Source of the DNA: Siderastrea siderea
Lineage: Eukaryota; Cnidaria; Anthozoa; Scleractinia; Rhizangiidae
Assembly (NCBI GenBank): GCA_964030785.1
Contig: CAXIQD010000377.1
Span: 41,001-105,000 of the forward strand
Reading direction: 5' to 3'
DNA: 64,000 nucleotides
Within the stretch, counting starts at the first letter, position 1. The number at the start of each line of letters is the position of its first letter. The position numbers and the translations under genes are program-made. This document shows, piece by piece, positions 6,592-36,349 of the stretch. A model generated the notes under the pieces. That model had not been told where the DNA came from and made no database searches. It worked only from the letters and a program-made list of their open reading frames with translations.

Positions 6592-7488
6592 ATGGACGTT
6601 TTACGCTCACTATTACTGTCATCAATCATATCAATGGTTATCCTGGCAAGTGTAAATGGTCAGGGACTCCGTTCCCTTGACCGACGGAAATCAGCGTTTT
6701 TGTTTTTCAACCGGAACAAGTTTGATATCATTTTTTTTTGCAAGAAACGCACTGGACTGCTGACCTGGAAATGCAAATCAAACGCGAGTGGGATGATGAA
6801 GTGTATTTTACTCATGGGACTAGCTCGGCGCGAGGTGTTGCCATTTTAACTCATTCGCGCCTTGAGTACAATGTCAGGCAAGTGCAACGCGATGATGAGG
6901 GGCGTTTTTGGGAATTTTGTTAGATATTGATGAACGTACGTTGAACCTTGTTAATGTTTATGCACCTTCAACGGATACTCAGCGGCGAACTTTCTTTGCT
7001 GATTTGGATCAATTTCTCTCTTATGATCACGAAAACATAATTGGAGGGGACTTTAATCGTATTATGGATGCGCGACTAGATAAGCTCGGAGGGAACCCTA
7101 ATGCGCGACAAAGTGCAAGTGCTTTCTTCAATGCAATTTGTGCGCGATATGATTTAGTTGATATTTGGAGGGATCGTCACAAGGATGTACGCAATTTCAC
7201 GTGGACTGGCCGAAATCCGGCGGATAATTCTTTTATTCGTACATGCATCGACCGTTTTCTTACTAGTCGAATAGTTAATCAGTTTGTTACTGTTGCTGAC
7301 ATTAAGTCTTACGCGCACTCCGACCATGATTGTATCAGCTTAACTTTGGATTTTGACAAGGTTCAGCGTGGATCAGGCTATTGGCATTTTAACAATGAAC
7401 TCCTTTCAGACGTGCTTTTTCAAGCGGAAATTGAACAGTTTTGGGCCGGTTGGCAGCAAAAGTTTGACGATTTCTCAGACCCCCTTAA
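6592..7488 (+). pseudogene. LINE copy B ORF2, endonuclease part, broken
   Basis: Encodes the N-terminal APE-type endonuclease that nicks the 5S target. The start MDVLRSLLLSSIISMVILAS leads into NGQGLRS. A one-base change in a T run near 6730 shifts the frame just before the QETHW-equivalent motif. Another shift near 6907 (GGCGTTTTTGG) joins the next block. Then VNVYAPSTDTQRR, IIGGDFN and SYAHSDHDC are seen, the last holding the catalytic SDH motif. The frame is cut at 7488 by the transposon and continues at 36350. Copy D has a TAATG overlap between ORF1 stop and ORF2 start; here it is TAACG. Confidence 0.88.
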
Positions 7489-8050
7489 GTGACAATCTCT
7501 GTAAAAGCGGTCCGCTGCATTTCGGGTCAGAAAATCAATTTCCCTCAAACTTTGCCCACGAAACTATCTTAGACCAAAAGTAAATATAAGCATTTTAGTT
7601 TTTGTAAATACTACAAAACAGTTTTTTTCTAAGCCAAAATCGCTCGCACCGCGAGGTTGCGATTTCAGGCGGTGATGTAGCGCAAAAATAGGGGGTTTTG
7701 ACGACCTCGCCACTTCAAAATGTAGCAATTTCTGGCATGTTATTTATTTTTTTGTCTTAGATTGTTCCTTGAGTAGTACATTGATGTTAAGTTTAGGAAG
7801 ATTTATCGAAGTTTACTGCACCAAAGAAATTTTTTTCCGAAGGCTCTTTTGCCATTAGCGCCAATGACGAAAAGATACACATTTTAAATTCGCCAATACA
7901 CAAAAGTCCAACTCCTTAAACACAGTTCTTCTATTCAGACGAACTAAGCTTAAGTTAAAAAACATGGAAATATAAAAATATGTTGTGGTTTAAGAGATAT
8001 TTTAACACTGCTGATCATCAATTGTTGTGCTTTTTTGAACATGGTGGCCT
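7489..8050 (+). repeat. Left terminal inverted repeat (~560 bp) of the giant transposon
   Basis: Aligns by eye over its full length with the reverse complement of 35786-36345, with scattered substitutions and small indels. Similarity runs from the tip to about TGTGCTTTTTTGAAC. It contains a GCGATTTC.GGCGGTGATG block conserved in both arms. Confidence 0.9.
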
Positions 8051-8696
8051 CAACCGCAAAACAAGAGGCGCACGAGCGAAAATCATATTATATAAATATC
8101 AATGAGTCAGTAGATATATTTGGACTGTAAAACTTCTGAGAAGGCATTAAAAAGGATATTCATCATTTAGAGAGCGGAACGGCCGGGTGTTTGGGGGGAT
8201 CACAGTTCAGTAAAATTATTTTAGTGATAAGCGTAATAGGACTTTAGACCGCACGGTCGGTGTTCACAATTCCTCTATTTTTACGTTCATCACATGGGAA
8301 GCTAAAATAATTTGGGTGAACGGGAACAATAGGTAAATATAGCATTTTGAAAGATGAAACGAAACAACGAATTGACAAAAGGGAGAACGAGCAAAACATA
8401 TTTGATTCAATTTATTACATTTGCGTCACTTCGAAAATGTAACTTTGAAGTGTCACGCAACCAAAACCAAGCATCAAATAAACAATCCCAGTTAGTGCAC
8501 TAAATTTACAGCATATACATGTGGACGGTAAAAACAACTTAGTAGAATAATACTGGCAATTTCCCGAATTAATATACTGAAAAGTGCTAGGAATAGTGAA
8601 CAAATTATTTCCTACCTGTCAATCAAACGTTGTTGCTGTTTACGATCACACGGCGGTCCAAGATATTTGCGCATTCGTATATATGTACAGGTGAAA
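8051..8696 (+). promoter_or_regulatory. Region upstream of the transposase gene
   Basis: 646 bp between the inner edge of the left inverted repeat and the first in-frame ATG. It should hold the promoter and 5' leader. A TATATAAATATC near 8090 and another A/T-rich block are possible TATA elements, but nothing decides the start site. No other gene is seen. Confidence 0.3.
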
Positions 8697-11600
8697 ATGG
8701 CGATTTCTTGTTTTTTGTCCAAAACCTCCAAGTTCCGGGGAAGCTGCGGTAATTCAAGAGGCCTCAGTGAACTTTTTCGTCTTGGAGATTTCAATGACTC
8801 TATTACTTCCCACTTGAACTCGTGCCATTTGTCCAGAGAAAACATGACGGAGTACGAGCTAATTCTTGCACGAGCAGGTGTTTTTGAATTACCTCTTGCA
8901 AAGGTTAATGAAATGATGATTTGTCCAAAGCATCGTCATTCTTTGGGAAAATACTGGAAGCAGCGGCGACCATGCCAGTATCCTATGCATCGTGGTGGGA
9001 GAAAAGCAACCAAGAGCCGAAACGTAGTGAGCGTCAACATGGCAAAGGAAATAATTAAACTACACGGAGTAATTGTACCGATCGGCTCAGGTTTGTACAT
9101 GATCACATGCACGTCGATTTATTTTAGAATACCAATGAACAGTTTTGAATTCACTATTAAAAAAAAATAGTGCTGATGGCAGCTCTTAAGAAGTTAAGAC
9201 TCTTTTCCTTTCATACTGCAGCAATCTGCAGCGTGTGTCGAAAGTATCACAAGTCTACAGTTGACCAGTCACCTTGGGTTGCAGAGGAAATTGAAGACAA
9301 TGCGGAAGACGCGGGTACAATGGAAGGGATTGCTAACAGGTGTGAAAGAACTTCACCAAGTAGCAAAATTCAACCACAAGCAATAATTATTCAAAGAAAG
9401 TACAACGGAGAGGGTGAACGGCTTACAACTGCGTAGCTGCAAATTCATGTGTGTGGTGTTATTTTTCTAAACATTTTTGTAGTCCTCAGTCTAAGCTTAC
9501 CAGTTTCCACGTGCTTATTCCCGCCAATATACCACCCTTCTCTAAACACACGCCAAATGTATCTTTCACTCATATTTAGTTATTTTTCATATACGAATCA
9601 ATCAGAATGTGTCCTGGGAGCCACAATCTCGAGGCAAAAAAGGCTGGGTTGCCTGTGCACATATGTGTTATTTCCCTTGCCATACCTAGTTTTCACACGT
9701 ATCCAACTGAGTACGAACTATAAAACTCTGTTTTAGATTGTTTTAGAGTTAAAACTAGTGTTTTTTATTTTCAAAGGGATGCGAAATTAGTTGCTTCAGC
9801 TGCTTTTCGCAGTTATGAACGTTCGCCTTTAACGCCACGCGCTGTGGTCTACGCGGCTGATTCAGACGTGGAGTGGACTCCTGGTTTGGGTGCTGGTCAT
9901 GACGACGTGAAGAGCGAATCAGAAAATGATTCTCAAGAGAACGAGAGTCTTCCAGTTAGGGTTTTTAATTCATCAATGGCGAACCTGGCGGAAGTTGTAG
10001 GAAAGAACATTGAACCACTGGAGTATCAATTAGAAAGCTGGGAGGAGAGTAGTGACTTTATAAAACAAACATTTTCACGCAAAGCCAAACAGGCCTGTCA
10101 ATTAGTGTGTGAAGTTATGGCGCCTCGTGATGGAGAAAAACTGTTTAAAGCTGTTCAGCAGCAGCGAAGTGAATTCGAAGGAACAGCTAGTGATCCTGGC
10201 ATAGAGGCACTTGTTTCTGCCTATAGGAAAGCACCTTCGAAAAAGCTCAAAACACAAATTCTTAGCATCTATGCCAATAAGTTCACAGTAAGCGAGCTGA
10301 AAGCCATTCACCATCCCTTTGAAACACTCAGTGACAGGCAAATAAAGAAAGCGCGAGCTCATACTGCTTCTCATGGTCCCGGCATCCCAGTTGCTAAAAT
10401 ACCACGTCATCGGATCCGACTAGACAACAGCCAGTTAGACCACTTTTTGGAATTCACATCTCGACCTTATTTTTATCAAGACGTGGCATTTGGAAGTCGC
10501 AAACTAAAACTTGACAGCGGCCAAGAGCTGGTTATGCCAAATGTAGTGCGTACAGTTGCAAAATGTACCATCATCGGTCAGTACCTCGATTACTGCAGAG
10601 AAGATAACTTTGATCCTCTGAGCCGAGCCACTATGTGGAGAATTTTAGAAGTGCAAGAGGCTTCTCAGAGAAAATCTCTTAAAGGTCTCGACAACACGGC
10701 TGCTGATGGCGCAGATGGCTTCGAAGCGCTTCACAAGATTTTAGAAGAGTTAGAGGCAGTTGGCGCCGACAAAGAGTGGTGTTCGGAAACGAGAAGGAAG
10801 CTTCGAGATAGTAAGTTATACTTAAAGACGACTTACCGTGATCACTGCCAAGAAGAGAGCAAGTGTCCCGATCATTGCAGAGCATTTGCCTTGAGTGATA
10901 AAGATGACGCAAGTTATCGAACAGACTGCAACCACAGTCATGATCATGTATGCAACGATTGTCAAGCACTAAAGGGAGTGGTTCAGGACGTCCAGTCGGC
11001 GATTATCAAGTGTTCCTCCAAAATAAACAGCAAAGAGAAAGAAGATGATCTTCGATATGAAGCAGACGCTGCAGCAGCTAAGATCAGGGAGTGGAAGGCT
11101 CATGTCATGCGGGCACAAAACCAGGATCAGAGCAAGCAAAATGTTCTGCTTTCTCTACAAGAAAACGAGGTGTTTGTAATAGTAGACTGGGCAATGAAGT
11201 TTATTCAGATGAAGTTTCGGGAAAAACAGTCCGAATGGTTCGGGAAGCGGGGCATAAACTGGCATATATCCAGTGTCATTACTAGGCACGCAGATACGCT
11301 GAAAATCAGATCGTATGCCCATTTGTTCAACAGTTGCAGCCAGGATTGGTTTGCGGTTCTCTCCATCCTTGAGAACTTGCTTTCAGTTATTAAAAGCAGC
11401 AACCCTGGCATCACAAAGGCTTACTTTAGGTCAGACGAGGCGGGATGCTACCATAACAGTTGCCTGATATCTTCTTTGAGAGACCTTGGAAAACGTCAAG
11501 GTATTGAGGTCTTGAGGTATGATCATTCTGAGCCGCAATACGGAAAAGACGTTTGCGACAGAATACTGTGTCCAATGAAAGCAGCCATTAGGCGTTATTG

Positions 11601-12765
11601 CAATGAAGGGAATGATGTCATTACAGCTGAAGACATGCATGTTGCTTTGATGAAAAGACCAGTTCGTGGAACGACAGCCGCAGTTTGTTGTGTTAACGAA
11701 GACAACAGAACTTTGAAAATAAATAAGATCCCAAGTTACAGTTCTCTTCACAATTTTGAATTGACCCCTGAAGGCGTTCGAGCGTGGAAGTCATCCAACG
11801 TTGGCAGTGGCAAAGTGTTTTTATGGGAGAGCATTATACAAAGTCCTCAAGAAGCTACAGGCCTTACCGTAAAACAGCCGTTTTTCCCAACCTCAGCAAG
11901 AGAAATGGATAGAACCACAAAGAAAAATAAAACCAATGACGTGGATAGCAGCTCCTTTGAATGCCCAGATCCCAAATGTACAGAGGAATTTGACAGTCCT
12001 GAAGAACTGGACATTCACTTGAATGCCTTTGGGCACCGCCGCCCCGCAGAACCGGCAAAAGTTGGCCTTTATGACCAATTGCGGATAGATTGGGTTCAAC
12101 GTTTCCAGACGATTTCTTTGAGTGACACTAAAACATCTTACAATGTCGGTGAGGGAAAATTGGAAACAAGTGAAACCGACTTGCTTGAAATGGGATGGGC
12201 ACTTCACAAGTCACGATCCACTCAAAAGCGGTTTTCTAAAAAGGTGCGTGACTATCTGCAGAAAAAGTTTGAAATTGGACAGCAAACTGGAAGAAAAGAG
12301 GATCCCGCGCAAGTGGCAGATGACATGCGGAGAGCTAGAAACGCAAAGGGAGAAAGAATGTTCACCCGAACTGAGTGGCTTACCAAGCTTCAAGTTCAGG
12401 GTTTTTTCTCGAGACTTTCTGCCAGGCAAAGGCTGACAGGCCGAAAAGAATTCACCCCAGACGAAGTCACTGATGATCTTGATGAAGAAACTGAAGAGGA
12501 GCATGCAAGCAGACAAGATGAGAACGTATTCGACGAAATTCATGATGCTGTCGTGTCTGAAAATGGTGTCATCCACCCGGTGATGTACGATGTGTATAAC
12601 CTTTGTGAGATGGTCGCAGAAAATAAACCTTCTTTTTTCAAAGTTAAGATGCTTAGAGAAATTTGTACCTACTTTGAAATTAGATTTAAAATAAGGGACA
12701 CAAAGTCGGAACTCGTGAAGAAACTAACCGAAATGGTATTAGACTGTAGCTGGCTGAGCACCTAA
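8697..12765 (+). CDS. Three-exon DDE-like transposase of the giant transposon (~1166 aa)
   Basis: Exons 8697-9090, 9222-9339 and 9777-12765. Both introns are GT-AG and phases match, giving 3501 nt without stops. The start is the first in-frame ATG (AAAATGG context); an upstream TTG at 8667 is open but not credited. Exon 1-2 encode a Cys/His cluster (CPKH at residue 76, CQYPMH, then CSVCRKYH at 134-142). A second cluster starts at C534 (CPDHC... CNHSHDHVCNDC). A probable RNase-H-like core has VFVIVDWAMKF (D641), FRSDEAGCYHN (D724) and SEPQYGKDVCDR (D762 or D765). The hydrophobic strand before D641 and helix after the third Asp fit a DDE/D fold. A C2H2 finger lies at 900-924 (C-x4-C-x12-H-x5-H). 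I recall similar unnamed proteins in cnidarian genomes. The transposase role is inferred from this core and from being the only gene inside the inverted repeats. Confidence 0.8.
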
Positions 12766-14454
12766 AAGTTTAGGGCAAGCTTTCGGCCAATGTTAAAACA
12801 CGTTTTCACAATCAGTAATCCTGTATTGTGTTGTTGTTGTTATTACATCTTAAGTGCGTGTGGGTGGAAAACCACCATTTTCCCAACAATTATACTTATC
12901 AAACAGAGAACAATGAAAGCTACTTTAAGGAATTTAGTAGATGTTTTCTACTGGTTAGCAGAAGACGCCTTTATTTCTTTGATTTCGTCGCTTGATTCAG
13001 TTTCAGCTATGGGTGCTCCCTGAAGACGTGGAAAGAAATCCCATATATTCCTGTTTCTATAATTTTGGGTGTGGATCCATTTTATATATTTAGTTTGTTA
13101 ATCGATACACTACGAAACGAAACATATGTATGCTTAGTATGGAAAGTAGTACTGAACAGCAGAGTCGGGCTGGGGAACTCCACTGAATAGCTGCTTCTAG
13201 TGCTTTATACATAGTCATTATTTGTCTAAAGATACCTTTGGTTGTACCTGGTTTGCGATTCAGTTGCATTACATTGAAAAGTGTAAAGTGTACGGATTTC
13301 CCCAGGGGGTGGTGGTGGGGGGGGGGGAGACACCCATAGAAAGGCTCGTCGAAACTTGTGAAAGGGACCCCTTAAGAGGTATCAGAACCTCGTTTAGGGG
13401 GCGTAAAGTTCAGACCTAGGAGGAAGGAAGTAGTTCTGGTCATACTTTCTTTGTAAGATTATTACCTTAATAAAGGCACCGCGATAACTACATTGTGTTG
13501 GCTTCAGATTTAAACACCTTAAGTGGTACCAACCGTGGAGTTTAAACAGTACTCCCAATAATTTTGTATGAGATTCCCCCACCCCATACAGGCACGCACA
13601 TGTGATGGGACAAAATGCCACATTGCACCCATTTCGCATACACAGTGTTAGTTCGTTCCTTTTTTATGTCTCCAGGCAGCGTTAGCGTTGTAGGTCAATT
13701 TTCGTTACCTTTTGCGCTAAACAAAACGGGAGGTCCACGGTAAAACCAGGTTGACTGTGTGACAAATAGTTCTGTCACGCAGTGCATTTATTGAAACGGA
13801 CTTCCATTCAACACGCAAGAAAAGTGTACTATCCAAAAGATTCTCTTTATAAGTGGTTAGTGAACAGTCACTAAGGTTAAGTAAAGCAATTCTTTCGAGT
13901 TTTCTAGTGACGTGATTTTGCTTTCTAGCCCGTGTACGGCCGCCCGCGCTCCGGAGTGCGGGCGGCTGTACAAAGACAGGCCATTTGCTTTCTAGCAGAA
14001 TGGTTTTACGTATAAACCTTAGGTACAGGTACGAAGAAAAAATGTTTTTATGCACTATTTTACCTTAATTGTTACATAGAGGCAAATATATGAGGTCCAT
14101 ATTGTGTTTGTGAGAATCGCTAACATTTCGTGACTTTTATGGAATATTTGCGACGACTAATTATTAAGTCAGACAGCAATGTGACATGACGTCTTATTGC
14201 GTTACTTCACCGGGCTGTTTCGAGTTATATGTTTTTGAATCAAAAGTTACTCGGATCTAAAGACAATTCAAATGGCATGTCTCTTTTCCTGAAATCTTTC
14301 CTCGTGGTCCCAGTTGATCCATTTAAATCAGATATTCGCCATGCATAGAGGAAAAGCAGCGGTAGAAGCGCTCTCGCCTTAAAGAGACGTCGCTGGTAAG
14401 TTTTGGTTCAATCACGTAGGAGCGAATCACGGGTTCTCCGCCGTTATTCCGGGT
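12766..14454. other. Non-coding interior of the giant transposon, left
   Basis: About 1.7 kb after the transposase stop with no convincing gene. It holds a G run near 13308-13330 and a strong palindrome at 13934-13971. Open frames of 60-112 codons on either strand show no recognisable domain. Confidence 0.6.
13934..13971. repeat. 38-bp near-perfect GC-rich palindrome
   Basis: GTACGGCCGCCCGC and GCGGGCGGCTGTAC are inverted copies around CTCCGGAG, itself a palindrome. Only three positions break symmetry. It is far more GC-rich than the DNA around it. It could form a long hairpin or cruciform. Role unknown. Confidence 0.85.
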
Positions 14455-14528
14455 AATGCATCCATGTTAGATCCACCAAGCGTCCCGAACTTCTAATTTA
14501 CATATCGTTACTTGACAGACATGCGTGT
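14455..14528 (+). repeat. Inner inverted repeat bordering the left minisatellite
   Basis: About 74 bp (AATGCATCCATGTTAGATCC to ACAGACATGCGTGTCACC) matches the reverse complement of 35545-35620 at the outer edge of the right minisatellite. So the minisatellite plus its border forms a second inverted repeat inside the element. Confidence 0.9.
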
Positions 14529-17500
14529 CACCATTAACCCCGAGTTACCCACGTTTAACCCGGTTTACCCTCATTAACCCCAAGTTACCCACGCTTCACC
14601 CTGTTTATGCTTGTTTACCCCAAGTTACCCACGTTTCACCCTGTTAACACTCATTTACCCCAAGTTACCCACGTTTGTCCCTGTTTACCCTCCCTCATTT
14701 AACCCAAGTTACCCACGTTTCACCCTGTTTACCCTCATTTACCCCAAGTTACCCACGTTTCACCCTGTTTACCCTCGTTTAACCCAAGTTACCCACGTTT
14801 CACCCTGTTTACCCTCACTTAATCCAAGTTACCCACGTTTTACCCTGTTTACCTTCGTTTACCCCCAGTTACCCACGTTTCACCCTGTTTACCCTCATTT
14901 AACCCAAGTTACTCACGTTTCACCCTGTTTACCCTCGTTTACCACCAGTTACCCACGTTTCACCCCATTTACCCTCATTTACCCCAAGTTACCAACGTTT
15001 CACTCTGTTTACCCTCGTTTAACCCAAGTTAGCCACGTTTTACCCTGTTTACCCTCATTTACCCCAAGTTACCAACGTTTCACCCTGTTTACCCTCCTTT
15101 ACCCCAAGTTACCCACGTTTCACCCCGTTTACCCTCATCTAATCCAAGTTACCCACGTTTTACCCTGTTTACCCTCCTTTACCCCAAGTTACCCACGTTT
15201 CACCCCGTTTACCCTCATCTAACCCAAGTTACCCACGTTTCACCCCGTTTACCCTCATCTAATCCAAGTTACCCACGTTTTACCCTGTTTACCCTCGTTT
15301 ACCCCAAGTTACCCACGTTTCACCCTGTTTACCCTCGTTTACCACCAATTACCCACGTTTCACCCTGTTTACCCTCGTTGAACCCAAGTTACCCACGTTT
15401 TACCCTGTTTACCCTCGTTTACCCCAAGTTACCCACGTTTCACCCTGTTTACCCTCGTTTAACCTAAGTTACCCACGTTTCACCCCGTTTACCCTCATTT
15501 AACCCAAGTTACCCACGTTTCACCCTGTTTACCCTCGTTCACCCCAAGTTACCCACGTTTCACCCTGTTTACCCTCGTTTACCCCAAGTTGCCCACATTT
15601 CACCCTGTTTACCCTCATTTAACCCAAGTTACCGAGATTTTACCCTGTTTACCCTCATTTACCCCAAGTTACCTACGTTTCAACCTGTTGACCCTCATTT
15701 ACCCCAAGTTACCCACGTTTCACCCTGTTTACCCTCGTTTAACCCAAGTTACCCACGTTTTACCCTGTTTACAATCGTTTACCCCAAGTTACCCACGTTT
15801 CAACCTGTTTACCCTCATTTACCCCAAGTTACCCACGTTTCACCCTGTTTACCCTCATTTAACCCAAGTAACCCATGCTTCACCCGGTTTACCCTCATTT
15901 ACCCCAAGTTACCCACGTCTCACCCTGTTTACCCTCATTTACAACAAGTTACCCATGTTTCACCCCGTTTACCCTCATTTAACCCAAGTTACCCACGTTT
16001 CAACCTGTTTACCCTCATTTAACCCAAGTTACCCACGTTTCACCCTGTTTACCCTCGTTTACCCCAAGTTACCCACGTCTCACAATGTTTACCCTCATTT
16101 ACCCCAAGTTACCCATGTTTCACCCCGTTTACCCTCATTTAACCCAAGTTACCCACGTTTCACCCTGTTTACCCTCGTTTCCCCCAAGTTACCCACGTTT
16201 CACCCTGTTTACCCTCACTTAACCCAAGTTATTCACGTTTTACTCTGTTTACCTTTGTTTACCCCAAGTTACCAACGTTTCACCCTGTTTACCCTCATTT
16301 AACCCAAGCTACTCACGTTTCACCCTGTTTACCCTCATTTAACCCAAGTTACTCACGTTTCACCCTGTTTACCCTCATTTAACCAGAGTTACCCACGTTT
16401 TACCCTGTTTACCATCGTTTACCACCAGTTACCCACGTTTCACCCCGTCTACCATTGTTTTAAACCCAAGTTACCCACGTTTCACCCGTTTACCCTCATT
16501 TACTCCAAGTTACCCACGTTTCACCCTGTTTACCCTCGTTTACCCCAAGTTACCCACGTTTCACCCTGATTACCCTCATTTAACCCAAGTAACCCATGCT
16601 TCACCTGGTTTACACTCATTTACCCCAAGTTACCCACGTTTCACCCTATTTACCCTCACTTACCCCATGTTACCCACGTCTCACCCTGTTTACCCTCTTT
16701 TACCCCAAGTTACCCACGTTTCACCATGTTTACCCTCATTTAACCCAAGTAACCCATGCTTCACCCGGTTTACCCTCATTTACCCCACGTTACCCACGTC
16801 TCACCCTGTTTACCCTCATTTACAACAAGTTACCCATGTTTCACCCCGTTTACCCTCATGTAACCCAAGTTACCCACGTTTCACCCTGTTTACCCTCGTT
16901 CACTCCAAGTTACCCACGTTTCACCCTGTTTACCTTCATTTAACCCAAGTAACCCATGCTTCACCCGGTTTACCCTCATTTACCCCAAGTTACCCACTTT
17001 TCTCCCTATTTACCCTCATTTACCCCAAGTTACCCACGTCTCACAATGTTTACCCTCATTTACCCCAAGTTACCCATGTTTCACCCCGTTTACCCTCATT
17101 TAACCCAAGTTACCCACGTTTCACCCTGTTTACCCTCGTTTACCCCAAGTTACCCACGTTTCACCCTGTTTACCCTCACTTAACCCAAGTTATTCACGTT
17201 TTACTCTGTTTACCTTCGTTTACCCCAAGTTACCCACGTTTCACCCTGTTTACCCTCATTTAACCCAAGTTACTCACGTTTCACCCTGTTTACCCTCATT
17301 TAACCCAAGTTACTCACGTTTCACCCTGTTTACCCTCATTTAACCCAAGTTACTCACGTTTCACCCTGTTTACCCTCATTTAACCCAAGTTACTCACGTT
17401 TCACCCTGTTTACCCTCATTTAACCCAAGTTACCCACTTTTTACCATGTTTACCATCGTTTACCCCAAGTTACTCACGTTTCACCCTGTTTACCCTCATT

Positions 17501-24980: not shown

Positions 24981-25330
24981 TAATAGGTCCGGATCTCTTC
25001 CAGGATGGTACCATCGTACCATCTGACCTATTGTCCTCCCAGAAGGGCACCCCTCTTCTGGTCCATCCTATGTTACACCCTAACATGGGTTCCCCTAGAG
25101 ACGCCGCTACTCTAGGGGAGATAGGCTCTGCCTTTCCTGCCACCCAAGGTTTGCCACAATAATCAATGTTTCTCATTGTTTTCCTGTGTCCACCCAGCAT
25201 GGGGGGTAAAGTCCAATATCCCCCCCCCCCCTGTAGTGCAACCAAGGGATTTTAATCATAGCTGCGAGCATCATCAAAATCCGCCTCTATGTTTTTGGTG
25301 TGTATTCCTTACAGTACAAACCGCAGGGAC
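24981..25330. other. 350-bp insert interrupting the left minisatellite
   Basis: Unique sequence between two array blocks, with a 13-base C run near 25220. It contains a hairpin (CCCCTAGAG...CTCTAGGGG, about 25093-25118). A CTCATT-like motif lies at both edges but comes from the array unit, so it does not prove target duplication. I do not recognise it. Confidence 0.6.
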
Positions 25331-27520
25331 TCATTAACCCAAGTTACCCACGTTTCACCTCGTTTACCCTCGTTTACCCCAAGTTACCCACGTTTCACCC
25401 TGTTTACCCTCGTTTACCCCAAATTACCCACGTTTCACCCTGTTTACCCTCACTTAACCCAAGTTACTCACGTTTTACCCTGTTCACCGTCGTTTACCCC
25501 AAGTTACCCACGTTTCACCCCGTTTACCCTCATCTAATCCAAGTTACCCACGTTTTACCCTGTTTTCCCTCATTTAACCCAAGTTACCCACGTTTCACCC
25601 TGTTTACCCTCGTTTACCACCAGTTACCCACGTTTCACCCTGTTTACCCTCGTTGAACCCAAGTTACACACGTTTCACCCTGTTTACCCTCGTTTAACCT
25701 AAGTTACCCACGTTTCACCGCGTTTACCCTCATTTAACCCAAGTTACCCACGTTTCATCCTGTTTACCCTCGTTTACCCCAAGTTACCCACGTTTCACCC
25801 TGTTTACCCTCGTTTACCCCAAGTTGCCCACGTTTCACCCTGTTTACCCTCATTTAACCCAAGTTACCCACGTTTCACCCTGTTTACCCTCGTTGAACCC
25901 AAGTTACCCACGTTTTACCCTGTTTTCCCTCATTTAACCCAAGTTACCCACGTTTCACCCTGTTTACCCTCGTTTACCACCAGTTACCCACGTTTCACCC
26001 TGTTTACCCTCGTTGAACCCAAGTTACACACGTTTCACCCTGTTTACCCTCATTTAACCTAAGTTACCCACGTTTCACCGCGTTTACCCTCATTTAACCC
26101 AAGTTACCCACGTTTCACCCTGTTTACCCTCGTTTACTCCAAGTTACCCACGTTTCACCCTGTTTACCTTCATTTAACCCAAGTAACCCATGCTTCACCC
26201 GGTTTACCCTCATTTACCCCAAGTTACCCACGTTTCACCCTATTTACCCTCATTTACCCCAAGTTACCCACGTCTCACCCTGTTTACCCTCATTTACCCC
26301 AAGTTACCCATGTTTCACCCCGTTTACCCTCATTAAACCCAAGTTACCCATGGTTTACCCTGTTTACCCTCATTTAACCCAAGGTACCCACTTTTTACCC
26401 TCTTTACCCTCATTTAACCCAAGTTACCCACGTTTCACCTTGTTTACCCTCATTTAACCCAAGTTACCCACGTTTCACCTCGTTTACCCTCGTTTACCCC
26501 AAGTTACCCACGTTTTACCCTGTTTAACTTCGTTTAACCCAAGTAACCCACGTTTCACCCTGTTTACCCTCATTTAACCCAAGTTACCCACGTTTCACCT
26601 CGTTTACCCTCGTTTACCCCAAGCTACCCACGTTTTACCCTATTTACCTTCGTTTAACCCAACTTACCCACGTTTCACCCTGTTTACCCTCATTTAACCC
26701 AAGTTACACACGTTTCACCCTGTTTACCCTCATTTAACTTAAGTTACCCACGTTTCACCCTGTTTACCCTCATTTAACCCAAGTTACCCACGTTTCACCC
26801 TGTTTACCTTCGTTTACCGCAAGTTACCCACGTTTCACCCTGTTTACCCTCGTTTACCCCAAATTACCCACGTTTCACCCTGTTTACCCTCACTTAACCC
26901 AAGTTACTCACGTTTTACCCTGTTGACCTTCGTTTACCCCAAGTTACCCACGTTTTACCCTGTTTACCCTCATTTACCCCAAGTTACCCACGTTTCACCC
27001 TGTTTTCCCTCAATTAACCCAAGTTAGCCAGGTTTCACCCTGTTTACCCTTATTTCACCCAAGTTACCCACGTTTTACCCTGCTTACCCTCGTTTACCCA
27101 AGTTACCCACGTTTCACCCTGTTTACCCTCGTTTACCACCAGTTACCCACGTTTCACCCTGTTTACCCTCGTTTAACCCAAGTTATCCACGTTTCACCCC
27201 GTTTACCCTCATTTAACCCAAGTTACCCACGTTTTACCCTCTTTACCCTCGTTTACCCCAAGGTACCCACGTTTCACCCTGTTTACCCTCATTTAACCCA
27301 AGTTACCCACGTTGTACCCTGTTTTTCCTTATTTCACCCAAGTTACCCACGTTTTACCCTGTTTACCCTCGTTTACCCCAAGTTACCCACGTTTCACCCT
27401 GTTTACCCTCGTTTACCCCAAGTTAGCCACGTTTCACACTGTTTACCCTCGTTTACCACCAGTTACCCACGTTTCACCCTGTTTACCCTCGTTTACCACC
27501 AGTTACCCACGTTTCACCCT
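25331..27520 (+). repeat. 40-bp minisatellite, left array (second block)
   Basis: Same unit and orientation as the block before the insert, about 55 units, with some single-base slips near 27090. It ends sharply at CGTTTCACCCT followed by CTTGAAGCTTCGCTTC. Confidence 0.96.
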
Positions 27521-27522
27521 TG

Positions 27523-28008
27523 CCCTTGAAGCTTCGCTTCTCGGGTGACTGTTCATTTTGCGTCAATCTTTCAGCCTCGGGCATTATCCTCCAATATACC
27601 AGCCACCTGAAGAGGTTTATTTACTAATTAGCCAATGCCTGATTATTTAGTGTCGAAGCTTTATTGAATATTTTCTTTCGTACCCTGTTTACCCTCTTTG
27701 AACCGAAGTTAGCCATGTTCCACCCCGTTTACCCTCACTTAACCCAAGTTACCCACTTTTCACCCTGTTTACCCTCGTTTAACCCAAGTTACCCACGTTT
27801 CACCCTGTTTACCCTCGTTTAACCCAAGTTACCCACGTTTCATCCTCTCCCTTGAAGCTTCGCTTCTCGGATGACTGTTCATTTTGCGTCAATCTTTCAG
27901 CCTCGGGCATTATCCTCCAATATACCAGCCACCTGAAGGGGTTTATTTACTAATTAGCCAATGCCTGATTATTTAGTGTCGAAGCTTTATTGAATATTTT
28001 CTTTCGTA
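27523..28008 (+). repeat. 160-bp direct repeat flanking a short minisatellite block
   Basis: 27523-27682 and 27849-28008 are nearly identical (CCCTTGAAGCTTCGCTTCTC to TATTTTCTTTCGTA), offset 326 bp. Between them lie about four 40-bp minisatellite units. This looks like the array's inner edge duplicated with its flank, perhaps by unequal exchange. Confidence 0.92.
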
Positions 28009-29501
28009 CACTCATGAAGATCTACAAAAAAATATATATTTTTTTTTCATTTATTATCGGGTCGATTACGTCGCAAGCAAAATAACATTAATATCAGGAT
28101 TTATGACTAGGGGAAGGCATCATCGATTTCTCAACTCCTACGTTACATCACATAAAAACGTACAAAAAAAACATGATAAAAACAATGAACATACGCGTGC
28201 CAATATTCCCTGCGAATAGAATATTTAGATATGTAGCTGATGTACATCTAATTGTAATAACGTTCTCCTATAAATCAAAAAAAATAAAAAGAGCAAACTG
28301 AATAATAATAGGTTATATAATATTAAAATAATATCAAAAGTAGTTGTAAATGGAATATTGTTATCTGTAATCTACCAAATTGAAAATAACGGTTCGCAGT
28401 ATTTACGGAAACAAGGATCGAGTGTGATTAATTTCTAACATTAAAACTCGAGAACAAGTAATTAATTTAGGATAGGGTTAGGGTTAACCCTAACCCTAAC
28501 CCTAACCTTTTATCCAATGCTTTGTTATTTTATTTTGTAGAGAAAGTGCCTGCAACTCGATCCAAGACTATGAGGAGTAAGTACAGTACTAGTTCAGTAA
28601 TGTAATGTAAGTTATTCGTTTATCGCAATATGCCAGTTTCCTTACCTCTTTTAGCCCTACACTGTGACAACTCACCCAAAATATTACCCAGTAATAGTGT
28701 GTTAAGGATTTCACAAGGAGTATCAAGGTAAAAAAAAAAGCTTTAGTGTTATCCTCCTACAAACTTGTTTCTCGCTATCTCTTTCATCTTTTTACTCCTT
28801 AACTGTGTGTTGTAATGAAACGTTTTACCTTTAGATTGTTGAAGCTTTTGTGTTGAGAAATGATTTACCAAGGCAAACATGTTTGTTCTAATCACCAGCT
28901 AGGTATTTCCGCATTTGTTACAGTAGTTTAAGTCGCAATCACATGCAACGAGGAGAAAGTAGCATGGAAAGTTTTTTTTTTCATTTTAGAACTAGCAGAA
29001 GGGAGCTTGGAGCAGAAAAAGAAGAAGAAACACGAGTAGCATTGCGGAGCATACACATATAGTGACACTATGTTTTGTTGACACTATGAACTGTTCTGGA
29101 AGCTAATTATTGGAAACACTAAAGACATATTTTATTGATTAGTTAAACAAATCGTGTATCAAATTTTGGGTTTACACTCTTCTTTTTAAAGAACCTCCTA
29201 AGTAAGATCGGATATTGATATAGTGGCACGGAAAACGCAACTTGAAATAGCGAAGCGCGCGAGTGACGTCTTGACTAAAACAAGACTCAGACAAATAAAC
29301 CGGAATGGCGGACGATTTTCCTAAAGCACTTTCTAAAACAGCCAGAGTTACCAAACACTTTTTTGAAACAAAAACTTCGCCTAGATTCCCTCTATTTCTC
29401 TCGAAACACGCTGAAGTTGTCCAAGCCTCGTGGGGGTCTAATCACTTGATTCTATTTTTAACCCTCGCGCGCTTCGCTTTTAGTTAGACTGCCAGATTTA
29501 A
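28009..29501. other. Central non-coding region of the giant transposon, left of the MITE
   Basis: A/T-rich unique DNA. It holds a head-to-head telomeric motif (28474-28507) and several A or T runs. A 60-codon frame at 29305-29487 starts in a good ATG context (GGAATGGCGG) but shows no known domain. No gene is supported. Confidence 0.6.
28474..28507. repeat. Head-to-head telomeric repeat, (TTAGGG) meets (CCCTAA)
   Basis: AGGGTTAGGGTT is followed without a gap by AACCCTAACCCTAACCCTAA CC. Two G-strand repeats face four C-strand repeats, as at a telomere-telomere fusion, but very short and inside a transposon. Confidence 0.95.
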
Positions 29502-29889
29502 AGGGACACTGTCACCAATATCTATAGATAACTTTGAAAAGCAAAGGGACATATTCTAATCAGCGGAAATCCAAAATACTGGTTGAATTTCATTTAAAAT
29601 TACTCTACCAGTTCTCTGAGGCTATAATTGAGTACGTTTTGTCGTGGATCGCTAGGATGGATATGGTTGCAACTTGAAAACATCAGGCTGATGTTTTCAA
29701 GTTAACTTTCCTTTGTTTCATGGAAAAATCGCCAGTAACTGACTATGGTTTGTTCTTCCTTTGAGAAAATCATTTGATTTCCTTTTCTTGACATTCTAGG
29801 AGCATTCTGTGTACAGGAAAAAAGCATTTAATTTACATTTCAGCACATTTTTCACCCCAAAACGTAAAAATCCCCGTGACAGTGTCCCT
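29502..29889. mobile_element. 388-bp MITE with TTAA target duplication
   Basis: Starts AGGGACACTGTCAC and ends with its reverse complement. TTAA lies at both sides (29498-29501, 29890-29893). Near its centre is a perfect 16-bp inverted repeat with a one-base loop (29671-29703). No coding capacity. TTAA use is shared with the large element around it, but the tips differ. Confidence 0.9.
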
Positions 29890-31795
29890 TTAAAGCCACT
29901 CACATTCAAGTGGGTAAAAAAATTAAAAAAAAAACTGTATGAAATGAAGTTCTCCTTGCGTAAAATGTACTATGATTCACAAGGTCACTCTGACTCTTAA
30001 CATTTGAAAATTGATTTTTAAAAGTTTTGAAATTACATTTTATACTCTAAGCAACGTCACAGTGGGGCAAAGCAAAACCATTATTTCAGCATTTTTAGCA
30101 CCTTTTGTTGAGAGCATATTCTACCCGTTAACTTTTAGGCCGTTTGGGCACATAAGTTACGCTAAGGCTCTATACCAGCGTTAAAAGATGGGTCAGCCTC
30201 ACTATATTACGACAATTACCATTCTATCATACTTGCACCTTTCCATTCTTTTGAATGAGATTAGTTTGAAATGTGAAAAAAAGGGCAGGTCAATGAAAAA
30301 ACTGACCCCCTTGTCGACTTTAGTTAACCAGCAATGGCCTAGTGATTTACAAACATTGCAAAGGTGCATAAAATGGGTACGCGCTTTGTCATCGCCTTGT
30401 CCCTTAGGCATTATCCTTGGATTAATTGCTTAATTTTTAGTACATTTCTTACTTTTAGTGTTTGAAAAAAGCATACTTTTTTATTTTCAAGTTACCTGTT
30501 TCGAAATAAAGGGAATCATCGTCACCATGTATTATTATTTGAAAACAGATCAATAAAAAGTGATTCCCATAAATGCGTTTGTCATATGCTTTTACAATAG
30601 CCACTTAACAACGCGATAACGTGAGATATGTCGATGCTACATGATTGCATTCTCGATATCGCGTTCAACCCAATTATGTTCGTCTTTTTTAGAGAAAAGG
30701 TTTATCACTTATAACACTATGATTCTTTTTGCGTCCCATTAAGCAACGGCGAAGGCAAAAGAAAACAAAACAACAAGCAAAAAAAGGGCTATGCACATGC
30801 GACACGCTTTTGTCCATTTCTTTGCCGTCGCCGATTGACTGGATGAGGGCGTTTACACTGCGACAATTTTGTTGTCCCTTTCTAAAGTAGAATACTATGG
30901 TTTATAATAAACTTAAGAAAACAGTCGCAAACAGTGGACACTTTGAACAAGGAGGATAGTAGCGATGAAGTTTGAAACAGCGCGAAATCAATTTCCAAGT
31001 TCCCCCCCCCCACCCCCACCGCGGCAGTAGCCCATTCATCCTGTCGTTTAGGTATACACACCCAATAGGCCGACACACAAACAAAGAAAATGACAACAAG
31101 TTTTGGCCGTTCTCTTTGTTCATGTCCTCCAGGAGTCCATTTAATGCTGAATTCAAATCTACTCTCCGTTTTTTTTTTTTGGCTTCTTACCTTTTCAATA
31201 GTACATTTGGTCCAGCCTAATATAGCGAGTCAGGCCTGACGTGTTTTTGGTTACGATTTCAGGTCACCGAGAATATCTTCTCAGTTTGTTTAGGTCGTTT
31301 CCTGTAAACGAAATCATAAACAGATAGCAACCACATTTTAAAGCAAAGCTTACTTTTTTACAAGAGATTATGAAGTTCCTTTTAATACAATGATATTTAA
31401 AGGGACACACTACAGATACCTCTGATCGTAAAAAGGTAAGTAAACTTGTTAGCTTTAAACGGACTAAAGCTGGAAAATGCGGTGAACGTTAAATAAAACA
31501 GTTTCAAAATTGGTAAAAACGAAAAGGTGACATTTAGGGAGGAAAGTCAAAAAAAAAAAAAGGAACGACACAACTGGAAGGCGATTAGTTGTTTAAAGCG
31601 CTATTACTACCTGGCCTGTGTACCTGTGTTTCATAACAGAGGAACAAATAAGGAGGTAAGAAACACGGGCTGTAAGTAATAAAAACATGTATATGAATAT
31701 GAAAACAACGTGAATAGGGGATCAAAGCGACAGCCTAGGTAATGACACCATCTCCACTTAAACCGCGAACATTTTCGAAATACGTAAGAAAGAAA
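29890..31795. other. Central non-coding region of the giant transposon, right of the MITE
   Basis: About 1.9 kb without a supported gene. It holds a C run near 31003-31018 and a TTTAAAGGGACAC at about 31396 like the MITE tip, with no partner end found. Short open frames have no recognisable features. Confidence 0.55.
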
Positions 31796-34700
31796 CTTGG
31801 GTGAAACGTGGGTAACTTGGTGTACATGTGGGAAAACAAGATGAAACGCAAGTGACTTAAATGTTGGGAAAAGATGTGAACGTGGGTTGGCAAACGAGGT
31901 GAAACCTGGGTAAGATGGATAAAATGTGGGAGAATAAAGTAAGACGTGAGTAACTTGGGTTAAATGAGGGTTAACAGGGTGAAAAGTGGGTAACTTGGGT
32001 TAAATGAGGGTAAACAGGGTGAAACGTGGGTAACTTGGGGTAAACGAGGGTAAACAGGGTGAAACGTGGGTAACTTGGGTTAAACGAGGGTAAACAGGGT
32101 GAAACATGGGTAACTTGGGGTAAATGACGGTAAACAGGGTATAACGTGGGTAACTTGGGTTAAATGAGGGTAAACAGGGTGAAACGTGGGTAACTTGCGG
32201 TAAATGAGGGTAAACAGGGTGAAACATAGGTAACTTGGGCTAAAAAATGGTAAACAGGGTGAAACGTGGGTAACTTGGGGTAAACGAGGGTAAACAGGGT
32301 GAAACGTGGGTAACTTGGGGTAAACGAGGGTAAAGAGGGTGAAGCGTGGGTAACTTGGATAAAATGAGGGTAAACGGAGTGAAACGTGGGTAACTTGGGT
32401 TAAACGAGGGTAAACAGGGTGAAACGTGGGTAACTTGGGTAAACGAGGGTAAACAGGGTGAAACGTGGGTAACTTGGGGTAAATGAGGGTAAACGGGGTG
32501 AAACGTGGGTAACTTGGGTTAAACAATGGTAAACAGGGTGAAACGTGGGTAACTTGGGGTAAACGGGGTGAAACGTGGGTAACTTGGGTTAAACGAGGGT
32601 AAACAGGGTGAAACGTGGGTAACTTGGGGTAAAGAGGGTAAACAAGGTGAAACGTGGGTAACTTGGGGTAAACGAGGGTAAACAGGGTGAAACGTGGGTC
32701 ACTTGGGGTAAACGAGGGTAAACAGGGTGAAAGGTGGGTAACTTGGGTTAAACGAGGGTAAACGGGGTGAAACGTGGGTAACCTGGGTTAAACGAGGGTA
32801 AACAGGGTGAAACGTGGGTAACTTGGGGTAAACGAGGGTAAACAGGGTGAAACGTGGGTAACTTGGGGTAAATGAGGGTGAACGGGGTGAAACGTAGGTA
32901 ACTTGGTTTAAATTAGGGTAAACAGGGTGAAACGTGGGTCACTTGGGGTAAACGAGGGTAAACAGGGTGGAAGGTGGGTAACTTGGGTTAAATGAGGGTA
33001 AACAGGGTGAAACGTGGGTAACCTGGGTTAAACGAGGGTAAACAGGGTGAAACGTGGGTAACTTGGGGTAAACGAAGGTAAACAGGGTGAAACGTGGGCA
33101 ACTTGGGGTAAACGAGGGTAAAGAGGGTGAAGCGTGGGTAACTTGGATAAAATGAGGCTAAACGGGGTGAAACGTGGGTAACTTGGGTTAAACGAGGGTA
33201 AACAGGGTGAAACGTGGGTAACTTGGGGTAAACGAGGGTAAACAGAGTGAAACGTGGGTAACTTGGGGTAAATGAGGGTAAACGGGGTGAAACGTGGGTA
33301 ACTTGGGTTAAACGAGGGTAAACAAGGTGAAACGTGGGTAACTTGGGGTAAACGAGGGTAAACAGGGTGAAACGTGGGTAACTTGGGGTAAACGAGGGTA
33401 AACAGGGTGAAACGTGGGTAACTTGGGGTAAACGAGGGTAAACAGGGTGAAACGTGGGTAACTTGGGTTAAATGAGGGTAAACGAGGTGAAACGTGGGTA
33501 ACCTGGGTTAAACGAGGGTAAACAGGGTGAAACGTGGGTAACTTGGGCTAAACGAGGGTAAACAGGGTGAAACGTGGGTAACTTGGGTTAAATGAGGGTA
33601 AACAGGGTGAAACGTGGGTAACTTGGGGTAAACGAGGGTAAACAGGGTGAAACGTGGGTAACTTGGGTTAAACGAGGGTAAACAGGGTGAAACATGGGTA
33701 ACTTGGGGTAAATGACGGTAAACAGGGTATAACGTGGGTAACTTGGGTTAAATGAGGGTAAACAGGGTGAAACGTGGGTAACTTGGGGTAAATGAGGGTA
33801 AACAGGGTGAAACATAGGTAACTTGGGTTAAAAAATGGTAAACAGGGTGAAACGTGGGTAACTTGGGGTAAACGAGGGTAAACAGGGTGAAACGTGGGTA
33901 ACTTGGGGTAAACGAGGGTAAAGAGGGTGAAGCGTGGGTAACTTGGATAAAATGAGGGTAAACGGAGTGAAACGTGGGTAACTTGGGTTAAACGAGGGTA
34001 AACAGGGTGAAACGTGGGTAACTTGGGGTAAACGGGGTGAAACGTGGGTAACTTGGGTTAAACGAGGGTAAACTGGGTGAAACGTGGGTAACTTGGGGTA
34101 AAGAGGGTAAACAAGGTGAAACGTGGGTAACTTGGGGTAAACGAGGGTAAACAGGGTGAAACGTGGGTCACTTGGGGTAAACGAGGGTAAACAGGGTGAA
34201 AGGTGGGTAACTTGGGTTAAACGAGGGTAAACGGGGTGAAACGTGGGTAACCTGGGTTAAACGAGGGTAAACAGGGTGAAACGTGGGTAACTTGGGGTAA
34301 ACGAGGGTAAACAGGGTGAAACGTGGGTAACTTGGGGTAAATGAGGGTAAACGGGGTGAAACGTAGGTAACTTGGTTTAAATTAGGGTAAACAGGGTGAA
34401 ACGTGGGTCACTTGGGGTAAACGAGGGTAAACAGGGTGGAAGGTGGGTAACTTGGGTTAAATGAGGGTAAACAGGGTGAAACGTGGGTAACCTGGGTTAA
34501 ACGAGGGTAAACAGGGTGAAACGTGGGTAACTTGGGGTAAACGAAGGTAAACAGGGTGAAACGTGGGCAACTTGGGGTAAACGAGGGTAAAGAGGGTGAA
34601 GCGTGGGTAACTTGGATAAAATGAGGCTAAACGGGGTGAAACGTGGGTAACTTGGGTTAAACGAGGGTAAACAGGGTGAAACGTGGGTAACTTGGGGTAA

Positions 34701-35550
34701 ACGAGGGTAAACAGGGTGAAACGTGGGTAACTTGGGGTAAATGAGGGTAAACGGGGTGAAACGTGGGTAACTTGGGTTAAACGAGGGTAAACAAGGTGAA
34801 ACGTGGGTAACTTGGGGTAAACGAGGGTAAACAGGGTGAAACGTGGGTAACTTGGGGTAAACGAGGGTAAACAGGGTGCAACGTGGGTAACTTGGGGTAA
34901 ACGAGGGTAAACAGGGTGAAACGTGGGTAACTTGGGTTAAATGAGGGTAAACGAGGTGAAACGTGGGTAACCTGGGTTAAACGAGGGTAAACAGGGTGAA
35001 ACGTGGGTAACTTGGGCTAAACGAGGGTAAACAGGGTGAAACGTGGGTAACTTGGGTTAAATGAGGGTAAACGGGGTGAAACGTGGGTAACTTGGTTTAA
35101 TTTAGGGTAAACATGGTGAAACGTGGGTAACTTGGGGTAAACGAGGGTAAACAGGGTAAAACGTGGGTAACTTGGATTAGATGAGGGTAAACGGGGTGAA
35201 ACGTGGGTAACTTGTGGTAAACGAAGGTCAACAGGGTAAAACGTGAGTAACTTGGGTTAAGTGAGGGTAAACAGGGTGAAACGTGGGTAACTTGGGGTAA
35301 ATGAGGGTAAACAGGGTAAAATGTGGGTAACTTGGGTTAAATGAGGGTAAACAGGGTGAAACGTGGGCAACTTGGGGTAAACGAGGGTAAACAGGGTGAA
35401 ACGCGGGTAACTTGGAGTAAACGAGGGTAAACAGGGTGAAACGTGGGTAACTTGGGGTAAACGATGGTAAAAAGGGTGAAACGTGGGTAACTTGGGTTAA
35501 ATGAGGGTAAACAGGGTGAAACGTGGGTAACTTGGGGTAAATGGTGAAAC
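31796..35550 (-). repeat. 40-bp minisatellite, right array, inverted
   Basis: Same unit as the left array but in reverse orientation (GGGTGAAACGTGGGTAACTT on the plus strand). About 94 units. The inner edge (31796-31975) is degenerate and becomes regular outward. A higher-order duplication is visible: the block from about 31990 recurs from about 33580 (offset near 1588 bp, reduced to about 1470 bp by a three-unit indel). Confidence 0.97.
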
Positions 35551-35620
35551 GCATGTCTGTCGAGTAACGATATGTGAATTAGAAATTCGGGACGCTTGGT
35601 GGATCTAACATGGATGCATT
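35545..35620 (-). repeat. Inner inverted repeat bordering the right minisatellite
   Basis: Partner of 14455-14528 in reverse complement (ACGCATGTCTGTCGAGTAAC to TGGATGCATT). Only a few substitutions separate the two. Confidence 0.9.
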
Positions 35621-35785
35621 GCCTTTTGCCTTATTCCGATTGTGCCGAAGAGTCGTAACATGATAAAATTCCGTAATTAGTAATGTTTCATCATCATTTT
35701 TCCTTTAGGAAAGCGTGCAGACCAAAAACACTTCAATAACATCAAAATTTGTTCGTTTAACATTCTTCGAGTGTGGGCCGTATTT

Positions 35786-36345
35786 GGCACCAAGTTGCAA
35801 AAAGCACTAAACTTCGTGACCACCTGTTTTTAAAATTCGCTTAAACCACAATATATTTTTATATTTACATGCTATTTGATGTAAGATTAGTTGGTCTGAA
35901 TAGAAAAATTGTGTTCAAGGAGTTGGATTTTTGCGTAATAACGAATTTAAAGTTTGCATCTTTTCTTCATTGGCGTTAATGGCGAGAGAGCCTTCGAAAA
36001 AAAATTTCTTTAATGCAGTAAACTTCGATTAATCGTGCTAAAATTAACATCAATGTACTATTCAAGGAATAGTCTAATACAAAAAAATAAATAGCACACC
36101 AGAAATCGCTACATTTTGAAGTAGTGAGACTGCCAAAACTCCCTATTTTTGGGTCACATCACCGCCAAAAATCGCCACCTCACGGTGCGGGCGATTTTGG
36201 CTTAGAGAAAAATTATTTTGTAACATTCACAAAAATAATAATGCTTATGTTGACTTTTAGACTAAGATAGTTTCGTGGGTAAAGTTTGAAGGAAATTGAT
36301 TTTGTGACCCGAAATGCAGCGGACCGCTTTTACAGAGATTGTCAC
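35786..36345 (-). repeat. Right terminal inverted repeat of the giant transposon
   Basis: Reverse-complement partner of 7489-8050. The tip CAGAGATTGTCAC is followed by TTAA and then the resumed LINE reading frame. Between it and the inner repeat (35621-35785) is 165 bp of unique sequence with nothing recognisable. Confidence 0.9.
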
Positions 36346-36349
36346 TTAA

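What the first reader, a model, noticed from the sequence alone, without database searches (positions are those of the whole stretch)
7489..36345. A 28.9-kb TTAA-flanked transposon whose body is mostly inverted minisatellite arms
Seen directly: matching ends in inverted orientation over about 560 bp, a TTAA on each side, and a clean empty site (single TTAA) in the sister LINE copy D. Inside are one spliced transposase-like gene, two long 40-bp arrays in opposite orientation, and a second inverted repeat bordering the arrays. Classic cut-and-paste elements using TTAA (piggyBac, Kolobok) are usually a few kb. An element of this size with one gene and about 17 kb of satellite is unusual. I cannot assign it to a superfamily.
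Basis: partly seen in the sequence, partly recalled or inferred. Interest (0 to 1): 0.92.

Follow-up and report, generated by a model that had tools for sequence, protein, structure and literature searches.

The report
Minisatellite foldback transposon nested in another
The apparent 28.9-kb giant transposon is really two nested mobile elements: an ordinary-sized transposon of about 7.7 kb interrupted by a 21-kb foldback element built mostly of inverted minisatellite arrays, whose relatives elsewhere in the same genome include copies that carry a transposase-like gene.

Summary
The TTAA sites, inverted ends (562 bp, 85% identical) and empty site are real. However, the arrays, their centre and the inner inverted repeat form a second element, a 21.2-kb foldback transposon (14452-35630). 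It sits inside a ~7.7-kb TTAA transposon with its own 8-bp target duplication, TTATTCCG. In all six gene-type copies of the TTAA transposon where this site was read, and at ten ends of five derivatives, the foldback is absent. The foldback end occurs at 41 exact places in the genome (two are the window's own), against 0 for the reversed control. Of 11 other end pairs tested, 9 have an exact 8-bp duplication and 2 match at 7 of 8 bases. Six relatives read whole share the plan: 80-bp end, 40-bp array, optional middle, inverted array, end. Two of them carry, between the arms, a gene with DUF6729, an invariant D-D-DxxH-E motif and an OTU-like domain; a third pair has a DUF6729 match between its ends. 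The window copy carries no gene, so it was probably moved in trans. New variant of a known kind (foldback); superfamily unresolved for both elements.

The parts
7485..7488 (.). TTAA, left target duplication of the outer transposon
7489..8046 (+). left terminal inverted repeat of the outer TTAA transposon (5'-GTGACAATC...)
8697..9090 (+). predicted exon 1 of the outer transposon's gene
   Evidence: predicted splice sites
9222..9339 (+). predicted exon 2
9777..12765 (+). predicted exon 3: putative transposase core with D488, D571 and D609/D612 (numbering of ORF 9724-12762), each present in 82 of 82 aligned sequences (this one and 81 homologues)
12766..14443 (+). 3' non-coding part of the outer transposon, before the nested insertion
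   Evidence: contiguous with 35631-35787 in other copies
14444..14451 (.). TTATTCCG, left 8-bp target duplication of the nested foldback
14452..35630 (.). nested foldback transposon, 21,179 bp
14452..14531 (+). left 80-bp end of the foldback (GGTAATGCATCC...)
14532..28009 (+). left minisatellite arm: 40-bp unit, 314 units at 70% or better, mean identity 92%; non-satellite insert near 24970-25260 and a 326-bp-period duplication at its inner end
28010..31798 (.). non-coding middle domain; parts of it shared with four other family copies at 93-98%
31799..35543 (-). right minisatellite arm, inverted: 88 units at 70% or better, mean identity 93%
35544..35630 (-). right end of the foldback: 80-bp inverted repeat to 35623, then 7 extra bp (TTTTGCC on the + strand)
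35631..35638 (.). TTATTCCG, right 8-bp target duplication of the foldback
35639..35787 (+). remaining 3' part of the outer transposon
35788..36345 (-). right terminal inverted repeat of the outer transposon
36346..36349 (.). TTAA, right target duplication of the outer transposon
47876..47879 (+). empty site: single TTAA in a sister LINE copy

Best explanation
Two cut-and-paste DNA transposons are nested inside a LINE. A ~7.7-kb transposon with 558-bp inverted ends and a spliced transposase-like gene inserted at a TTAA in the LINE (shown: ends, TTAA, empty site). Later a foldback transposon inserted into its 3' non-coding part, duplicating 8 bp (shown: duplication, and empty sites in other copies). 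The foldback has 80-bp ends, two inverted arms of a 40-bp minisatellite with one G-rich strand, and a non-coding middle. It belongs to a dispersed family whose gene-bearing members encode a DUF6729 / D-D-DxxH-E / OTU-like protein and a CXC-domain protein between the same arms. The gene-less window copy was most likely moved in trans by that protein (inferred). The arms lengthen and shorten independently by tandem duplication inside each arm (shown as within-arm duplicates; unequal exchange or replication slippage is inferred), so the 21-kb size may have been reached partly after insertion.
For: TTATTCCG flanks the inner repeat and is unique in the window. Six of six gene-type copies read across the site (L009, L014, L015, L017, L018, L020) lack the foldback: four show the exact single TTATTCCG, L020 differs by one base and L018 has a small deletion. 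Ten ends of five derivatives also lack it. No array hit, foldback end or satellite core in any of the 20 loci around other copies, some of which hold N stretches. Foldback ends: 41 exact places, reversed control 0; 40 of 58 candidates scored, 33 of these 40 beginning at window 14451-14452. TSDs: 7 of 7 exact with 0 of 42 mismatched partners, then 2 of 4 more exact and 2 at 7 of 8. Six relatives read whole. Gene in C10 and C12a; DUF6729 match between the ends of C14. D277, D348, DxxH369-372 and E471 in 30 of 30 sequences (C10 and 29 homologues); OTU-like Cys 30 of 30, His 28 of 30. Within-arm 400-bp windows reach 100% (left) and 99.75% (right); between the arms the best is 95%.
Against: The right end has 7 extra bp beyond the inverted repeat, not seen in the nine other pairs with exact duplications. 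No activity was shown. The link between the DUF6729 protein and the ends rests on two copies read whole plus one pair with a DUF6729 match between its ends. Most DUF6729 matches in the genome (29 of 33) are not near the foldback ends listed. Long arrays can be misassembled, and the window lies on a 105-kb contig apart from the large ones.
Confidence: 0.93

Rival explanations
1. One 28.9-kb TTAA transposon that carries minisatellite arms as its own body.
For: Ends, TTAA and LINE empty site fit it as well.
Against: Other copies of the TTAA transposon lack the arrays and show a single TTATTCCG. The foldback occurs at other sites: four copies compared with the outer transposon's segments (C7, C9, C11, C12b, with about 55 bp of flank) show no match to them.
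Confidence: 0.02
2. The arrays grew in place from a short local repeat inside the TTAA transposon, with no second transposon.
For: Arrays do expand in place.
Against: The 8-bp duplication, the unique 80-bp ends, and the same ends and arms at other sites with their own 8-bp duplications.
Confidence: 0.02
3. The foldback is nested as described, but the DUF6729-OTU gene in C10, C12a and C14 is a passenger, and another transposase moves the family.
For: Most DUF6729 matches in the genome are not near known foldback ends. The gene was read between the arms in only two copies and seen as a match in a third.
Against: The protein has an invariant D-D-DxxH-E pattern, as expected of a transposase. The interiors of C10 and C12a match each other at about 98% over two long pieces.
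Confidence: 0.2
4. The arrays are an assembly artefact.
For: The window is on a small contig and the arrays are highly repetitive.
Against: The same ends and arrays are assembled on contigs of 45-76 Mb with clean 8-bp duplications. Array lengths, not the nesting, are what could be wrong.
Confidence: 0.04

Closest known systems
Foldback transposons with tandem-repeat arms: Tetris of Drosophila virilis (PMC4079207) and the group it cites from Drosophila, sea urchin, Chironomus and plants
   Same: Outer flanking domain, then tandem repeats, then a non-coding middle; inverted arms of variable repeat number; 8-10 bp target duplications; seeding of satellite arrays (passages and two sections read)
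   Different: Tetris arms are up to 1.7 kb with a few ~220-bp units and no autonomous copy was found. Here arms reach 13.5 kb with over 300 units of 40 bp, and gene-bearing members exist.
Tm1, Mutator/foldback family of root-knot nematodes (PMC3169594)
   Same: Composite arms with a short internal repeat; mostly non-autonomous copies plus a transposase-bearing one; short non-inverted terminal motifs
   Different: Mostly 9-bp duplications and a MULE transposase. Here 8 bp, and no MULE model among the Pfam hits.
Galileo (P superfamily, PMC3573991)
   Same: Long internally repetitive ends that vary in length independently (passages)
   Different: Ends about 0.3-1.2 kb, 7-bp flanking duplications, P-type transposase; no P-type model among the Pfam hits here.
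Kolobok and piggyBac, for the outer transposon
   Same: TTAA target duplication
   Different: Ends begin 5'-GT, not 5'-RR as for Kolobok; no conserved C/DxxH motif; no piggyBac model hit.

Membership tests
Foldback-type transposon (nested element) | long inverted arms containing tandem repeats | tested here: met
   window and six other copies read whole
Foldback-type transposon (nested element) | conserved non-repetitive outer end | tested here: met
   80-bp end at 97-100% in the 40 scored matches of 58 candidates
Foldback-type transposon (nested element) | 8-10 bp target duplications (as in Tetris) | tested here: met
   8 bp: window plus 9 of 11 other pairs exact, 2 at 7 of 8
Foldback-type transposon (nested element) | variable middle, often without genes | tested here: met
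   absent in C11 and C12b, without a recognised gene in C9, C7 and the window, gene-bearing in C10 and C12a
hAT/P/MuDR/Kolobok/Dada group (foldback's putative transposase) | DDE with C/DxxH between second D and E | tested here: met
   D277, D348, D369-x-x-H372, E471 in 30 of 30; group definition from PMC9587614 section 3
Mutator (MULE), foldback | MULE transposase domain | tested here: not met
   no MULE model among Pfam hits up to E 1; rests on Pfam only
Zisupton/KDZ, foldback | 8-bp target duplication | tested here: met
   Zisupton 8 bp per PMC12730594 passage
Zisupton/KDZ, foldback | KDZ transposase similarity | tested here: not met
   no KDZ model among Pfam hits; that Pfam holds such a model is recalled
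Kolobok, outer transposon | TTAA target duplication | tested here: met
Kolobok, outer transposon | termini 5'-RR | tested here: not met
   5'-GTGACAATC, GTGGCAATC or GTGACGATC; feature from PMC9587614
Kolobok, outer transposon | C/DxxH between second D and E | tested here: not met
   none with both sides above 30% at residues 572-759 in 82 sequences
piggyBac, outer transposon | piggyBac transposase domain | tested here: not met
   no such Pfam hit for the window protein or for the 30 members of A1, window included
Sola3, outer transposon | Sola3 transposase and termini | not tested
   TTAA preference of Sola3 is recalled; no reference sequence on hand, the key paper is not held

The most novel reading that the evidence does not exclude
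A previously unnamed transposase type (DUF6729, DDE with DxxH, fused OTU-like protease, plus a CXC-domain partner protein) drives a foldback family in this animal, probably a cnidarian. The minisatellite arms with their G-rich strand would be a functional part of the element (repeated binding sites or fold-prone DNA), and transposition would disperse expandable inverted minisatellites through the genome.
Probability: 0.4. Interest if true: 0.75.

Novelty: new variant of a known kind. Interest (0 to 1): 0.6.

Why it matters
It removes a supposed giant transposon and replaces it with a clean case of how minisatellites can spread: a mobile element that carries inverted minisatellite arms, from 20 to over 300 units long in the copies read whole, to new sites with 8-bp duplications. 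For Tetris, a close structural parallel, no transposase-bearing copy was found. Here gene-bearing members sit in the same genome as gene-less ones, so which protein moves them and what the repeats do can be tested directly. Inverted G-rich arrays are also likely hot spots for rearrangement and assembly error (inference).

Tried and rejected
Similarity between the satellite unit and the outer transposon's ends: best local scores were reached by 151 and 40 of 200 shuffles, so there is no sign that the arrays come from those ends. Searches of viral and bacterial/archaeal contig collections for the outer protein, end, satellite and empty site found nothing, as expected for an animal element; a phage search was also empty. 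No Rfam match at 7400-36400 and no tRNA in the window. No solved-structure relative of the outer transposon's protein. dN/dS among eight exon-3 copies is 0.49-1.13, so no clear selection signal; in all seven other copies the longest open stretch (347-898 aa) is shorter than the window's (its stop counts include the normal final stop). A 101-kb pair of foldback ends on C2 (7 of 8 duplication, right-hand sample not satellite) and a 67-kb pair on C11 (7 of 8) were not accepted as single elements. The 42.6-kb C12 pair has an exact 8-bp duplication, but 18 of its 20 samples are not satellite; one of these, L079, looks by eye like the family's middle domain.

Corrected on checking: one search's chance value had skipped draws in its denominator; one search gives 0.0007. 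The 4.6-kb within-arm span is only 77% identical overall at one fixed offset, because of indels; its best 400-bp windows are 100%. L027/L028, not printed, has lost the site by deletion on one side; on the other it reads across the site and meets a different insertion, partly N, about 5 bases beyond it, with no foldback end.

Papers: read as abstract plus named sections, PMC9587614 (sections 3, 9, 10) and PMC2872659 (section 10); as passages plus sections, PMC4079207 (sections 10 and 17) and PMC3169594 (section 11 part 1); as passages only, PMC3573991, PMC12730594, PMC5199201, PMC8634313. Everything else was seen only in search listings. I saw no description of this family in the listings of searches; that is not proof that none is in print.
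Full report
The ends at 7485-8046 and 36349-35788 pair over 562 bp at 84.7%, TTAA lies on both sides, and the sister LINE copy has one TTAA where this copy has the insertion. The insertion lies between parts of the LINE that resemble endonuclease and reverse transcriptase (Pfam scores just under the curated cut-offs). The 40-bp arrays, 314 and 88 units at 70% or better, face each other, and an inner inverted repeat of 142 bp borders them.

The inner structure is a second transposon. The 8-mer TTATTCCG stands immediately left of the inner repeat (14444-14451) and 7 bp beyond it on the right (35631-35638), and nowhere else in the 64 kb; a match of that kind between random non-array positions has frequency 0.0007 (correcting). 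The proof comes from the window's own genome (831 Mb, unnamed). I fetched 20 stretches around other copies of the outer transposon. In the six gene-type copies where the site was read, the 3' part runs straight on: L009, L014, L015 and L017 with a single exact TTATTCCG, L020 with one base changed, L018 with a small deletion. Ten ends of five shorter derivatives (L022-L026) are also uninterrupted. A sixth derivative, L027/L028, has lost the site by deletion on one side; on the other it reads across the site and meets a different insertion about 5 bases beyond it, with no foldback end. L010 and L012 hold N stretches there; L011, L013, L016 and L019 showed no match reaching the site within the stretch fetched. 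None of the 20 stretches showed an array hit, a foldback end or a satellite core. The outer transposon without the insertion is about 7.67 kb by subtraction; L018 has both ends at 7.35 kb. L009 keeps only the first 57 bp of the right end.

The outer transposon is a TTAA family. In one search all 40 scored matches to its left end, two of them the window's own ends, begin at or before the first T of TTAA, out of 430 candidates; high-scoring matches favour complete ends. One search printed 28 ends, all with TTAA, but that list was filtered for alignments including it, and a few share flanks. Its gene has three predicted exons; two searches found 223 and 221 homologues (120 listed each), the named ones from anthozoans (Oculina, Actinostola) plus one labelled as a bacterial MAG. 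There is no Pfam transposase hit. D488, D571, D609 and D612 are present in 82 of 82 aligned sequences, window included, consistent with a DDD catalytic core (inference). Kolobok's 5'-RR ends and C/DxxH are not met, and no piggyBac model matched. Sola3 could not be tested. Its superfamily stays open.

The nested element is one of a family. Its 80-bp end was matched by 40 scored of 58 candidates, 33 of the 40 starting at window 14451-14452, which fixes the boundary independently. The exact 26-bp end occurs 41 times, the window's two included, the reversed control 0. I read both ends of seven other pairs: all 14 go from the 80-bp end into the 40-bp array, 7 of 7 have identical 8-bp flanks, and 0 of 42 mismatched partners do. 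Of four further pairs, two are exact (42.6 kb on C12, 9.5 kb on C14) and two match at 7 of 8 (67 and 101 kb apart; not accepted as single elements). Relatives read whole have forward/inverted unit counts of 27/74 (C11, 4.3 kb), 63/20 (C12b, 3.6 kb), 35/21 (C9, 6.6 kb), 87/78 (C7, 9.2 kb), 93/80 (C12a, 11.4 kb) and 44/102 (C10, 14.9 kb); the window has 318/90 by the same count. C11 and C12b have no middle at all. C9 and C7 have large parts of the window's middle at 95-98%; C10 and C12a share about 480 bp of it at 93-94%.

C10 and C12a carry genes between the arms. C10 has an open frame of 813 codons with DUF6729 (E 2e-8, above the cut-off), a sub-threshold OTU-like match (E 0.0016) and a very weak integrase match, and a second frame with an MSL2-type CXC domain (E 3e-8). 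C12a has the same genes with a shorter open frame (571 codons); the two interiors match at 97.8-98.3% over 2.2 and 1.8 kb. In an alignment of C10 and 29 homologues, D277, D348, D369-x-x-H372 and E471 are kept in 30 of 30, the OTU-like cysteine in 30 and the histidine in 28. DUF6729 has 33 matches in the genome; three (C10, C12a, C14) lie between foldback ends with exact 8-bp duplications, and a fourth (C2) lies 13 kb from one foldback end. This is the best candidate for the transposase; its role is inferred.

How the arms change: inside the left arm 400-bp windows recur at 1680 and 1919 bp with 100% identity, and in the right arm at 1469 bp with 99.75%, while the best 400-bp window between the arms is 95%. 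So the arms grow separately, and some of that growth is recent. The G-rich strand carries about 85-90 runs of three or more G per kb against 7-8 in the rest of the window, and 88 and 33 non-overlapping four-run motifs with loops up to 7 in the two arms against 1 and 0 on the two strands of the rest; whether they fold was not tested.

Noticed in passing
L022-L026 (5.6-7.3 kb): Derivatives of the TTAA transposon with two right-type ends, each followed inward by inverted copies of the 3' region: a shorter family with long inverted ends.
   Followed up: partly
L027 8535 to L028 7089: Another derivative carries a different insertion, partly N, about 5 bases beyond the site that the foldback uses in the window.
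   Followed up: no
window 24970-25260: About 290 bp of non-satellite DNA interrupting the left array, no match elsewhere in the window.
   Followed up: no
window 27355-28009: A 326-bp-period duplication of array plus about 160 bp of non-satellite DNA at the inner edge of the left arm.
   Followed up: no
window 28474-28507: Short telomere-like palindrome (TTAGGG/CCCTAA) in the foldback's middle domain.
   Followed up: no
window 29497-29895: MITE-like inverted pair TTAAAGGGACACTGTCAC ... GTGACAGTGTCCCTTTAA within the middle domain.
   Followed up: no
G000:C12:3989976-4032611: A 42.6-kb pair of foldback ends with an exact 8-bp duplication; satellite near both ends, 18 of 20 interior samples not satellite (one resembling the family's middle domain), so probably an element with further insertions.
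   Followed up: partly
G000:C11:973400 and C11:1764634: Two foldback copies lie in very similar flanking sequence, inserted a few bases apart: a repeated target or a duplicated region.
   Followed up: no
window 1489-3297: 456-bp tandem repeat, four copies at 99%, related to parts of the surrounding repeated sequence.
   Followed up: no
G000:C6:42.74-42.94 Mb: Cluster of many DUF6729 matches, two of them nearly full length, not near the foldback ends listed here.
   Followed up: no
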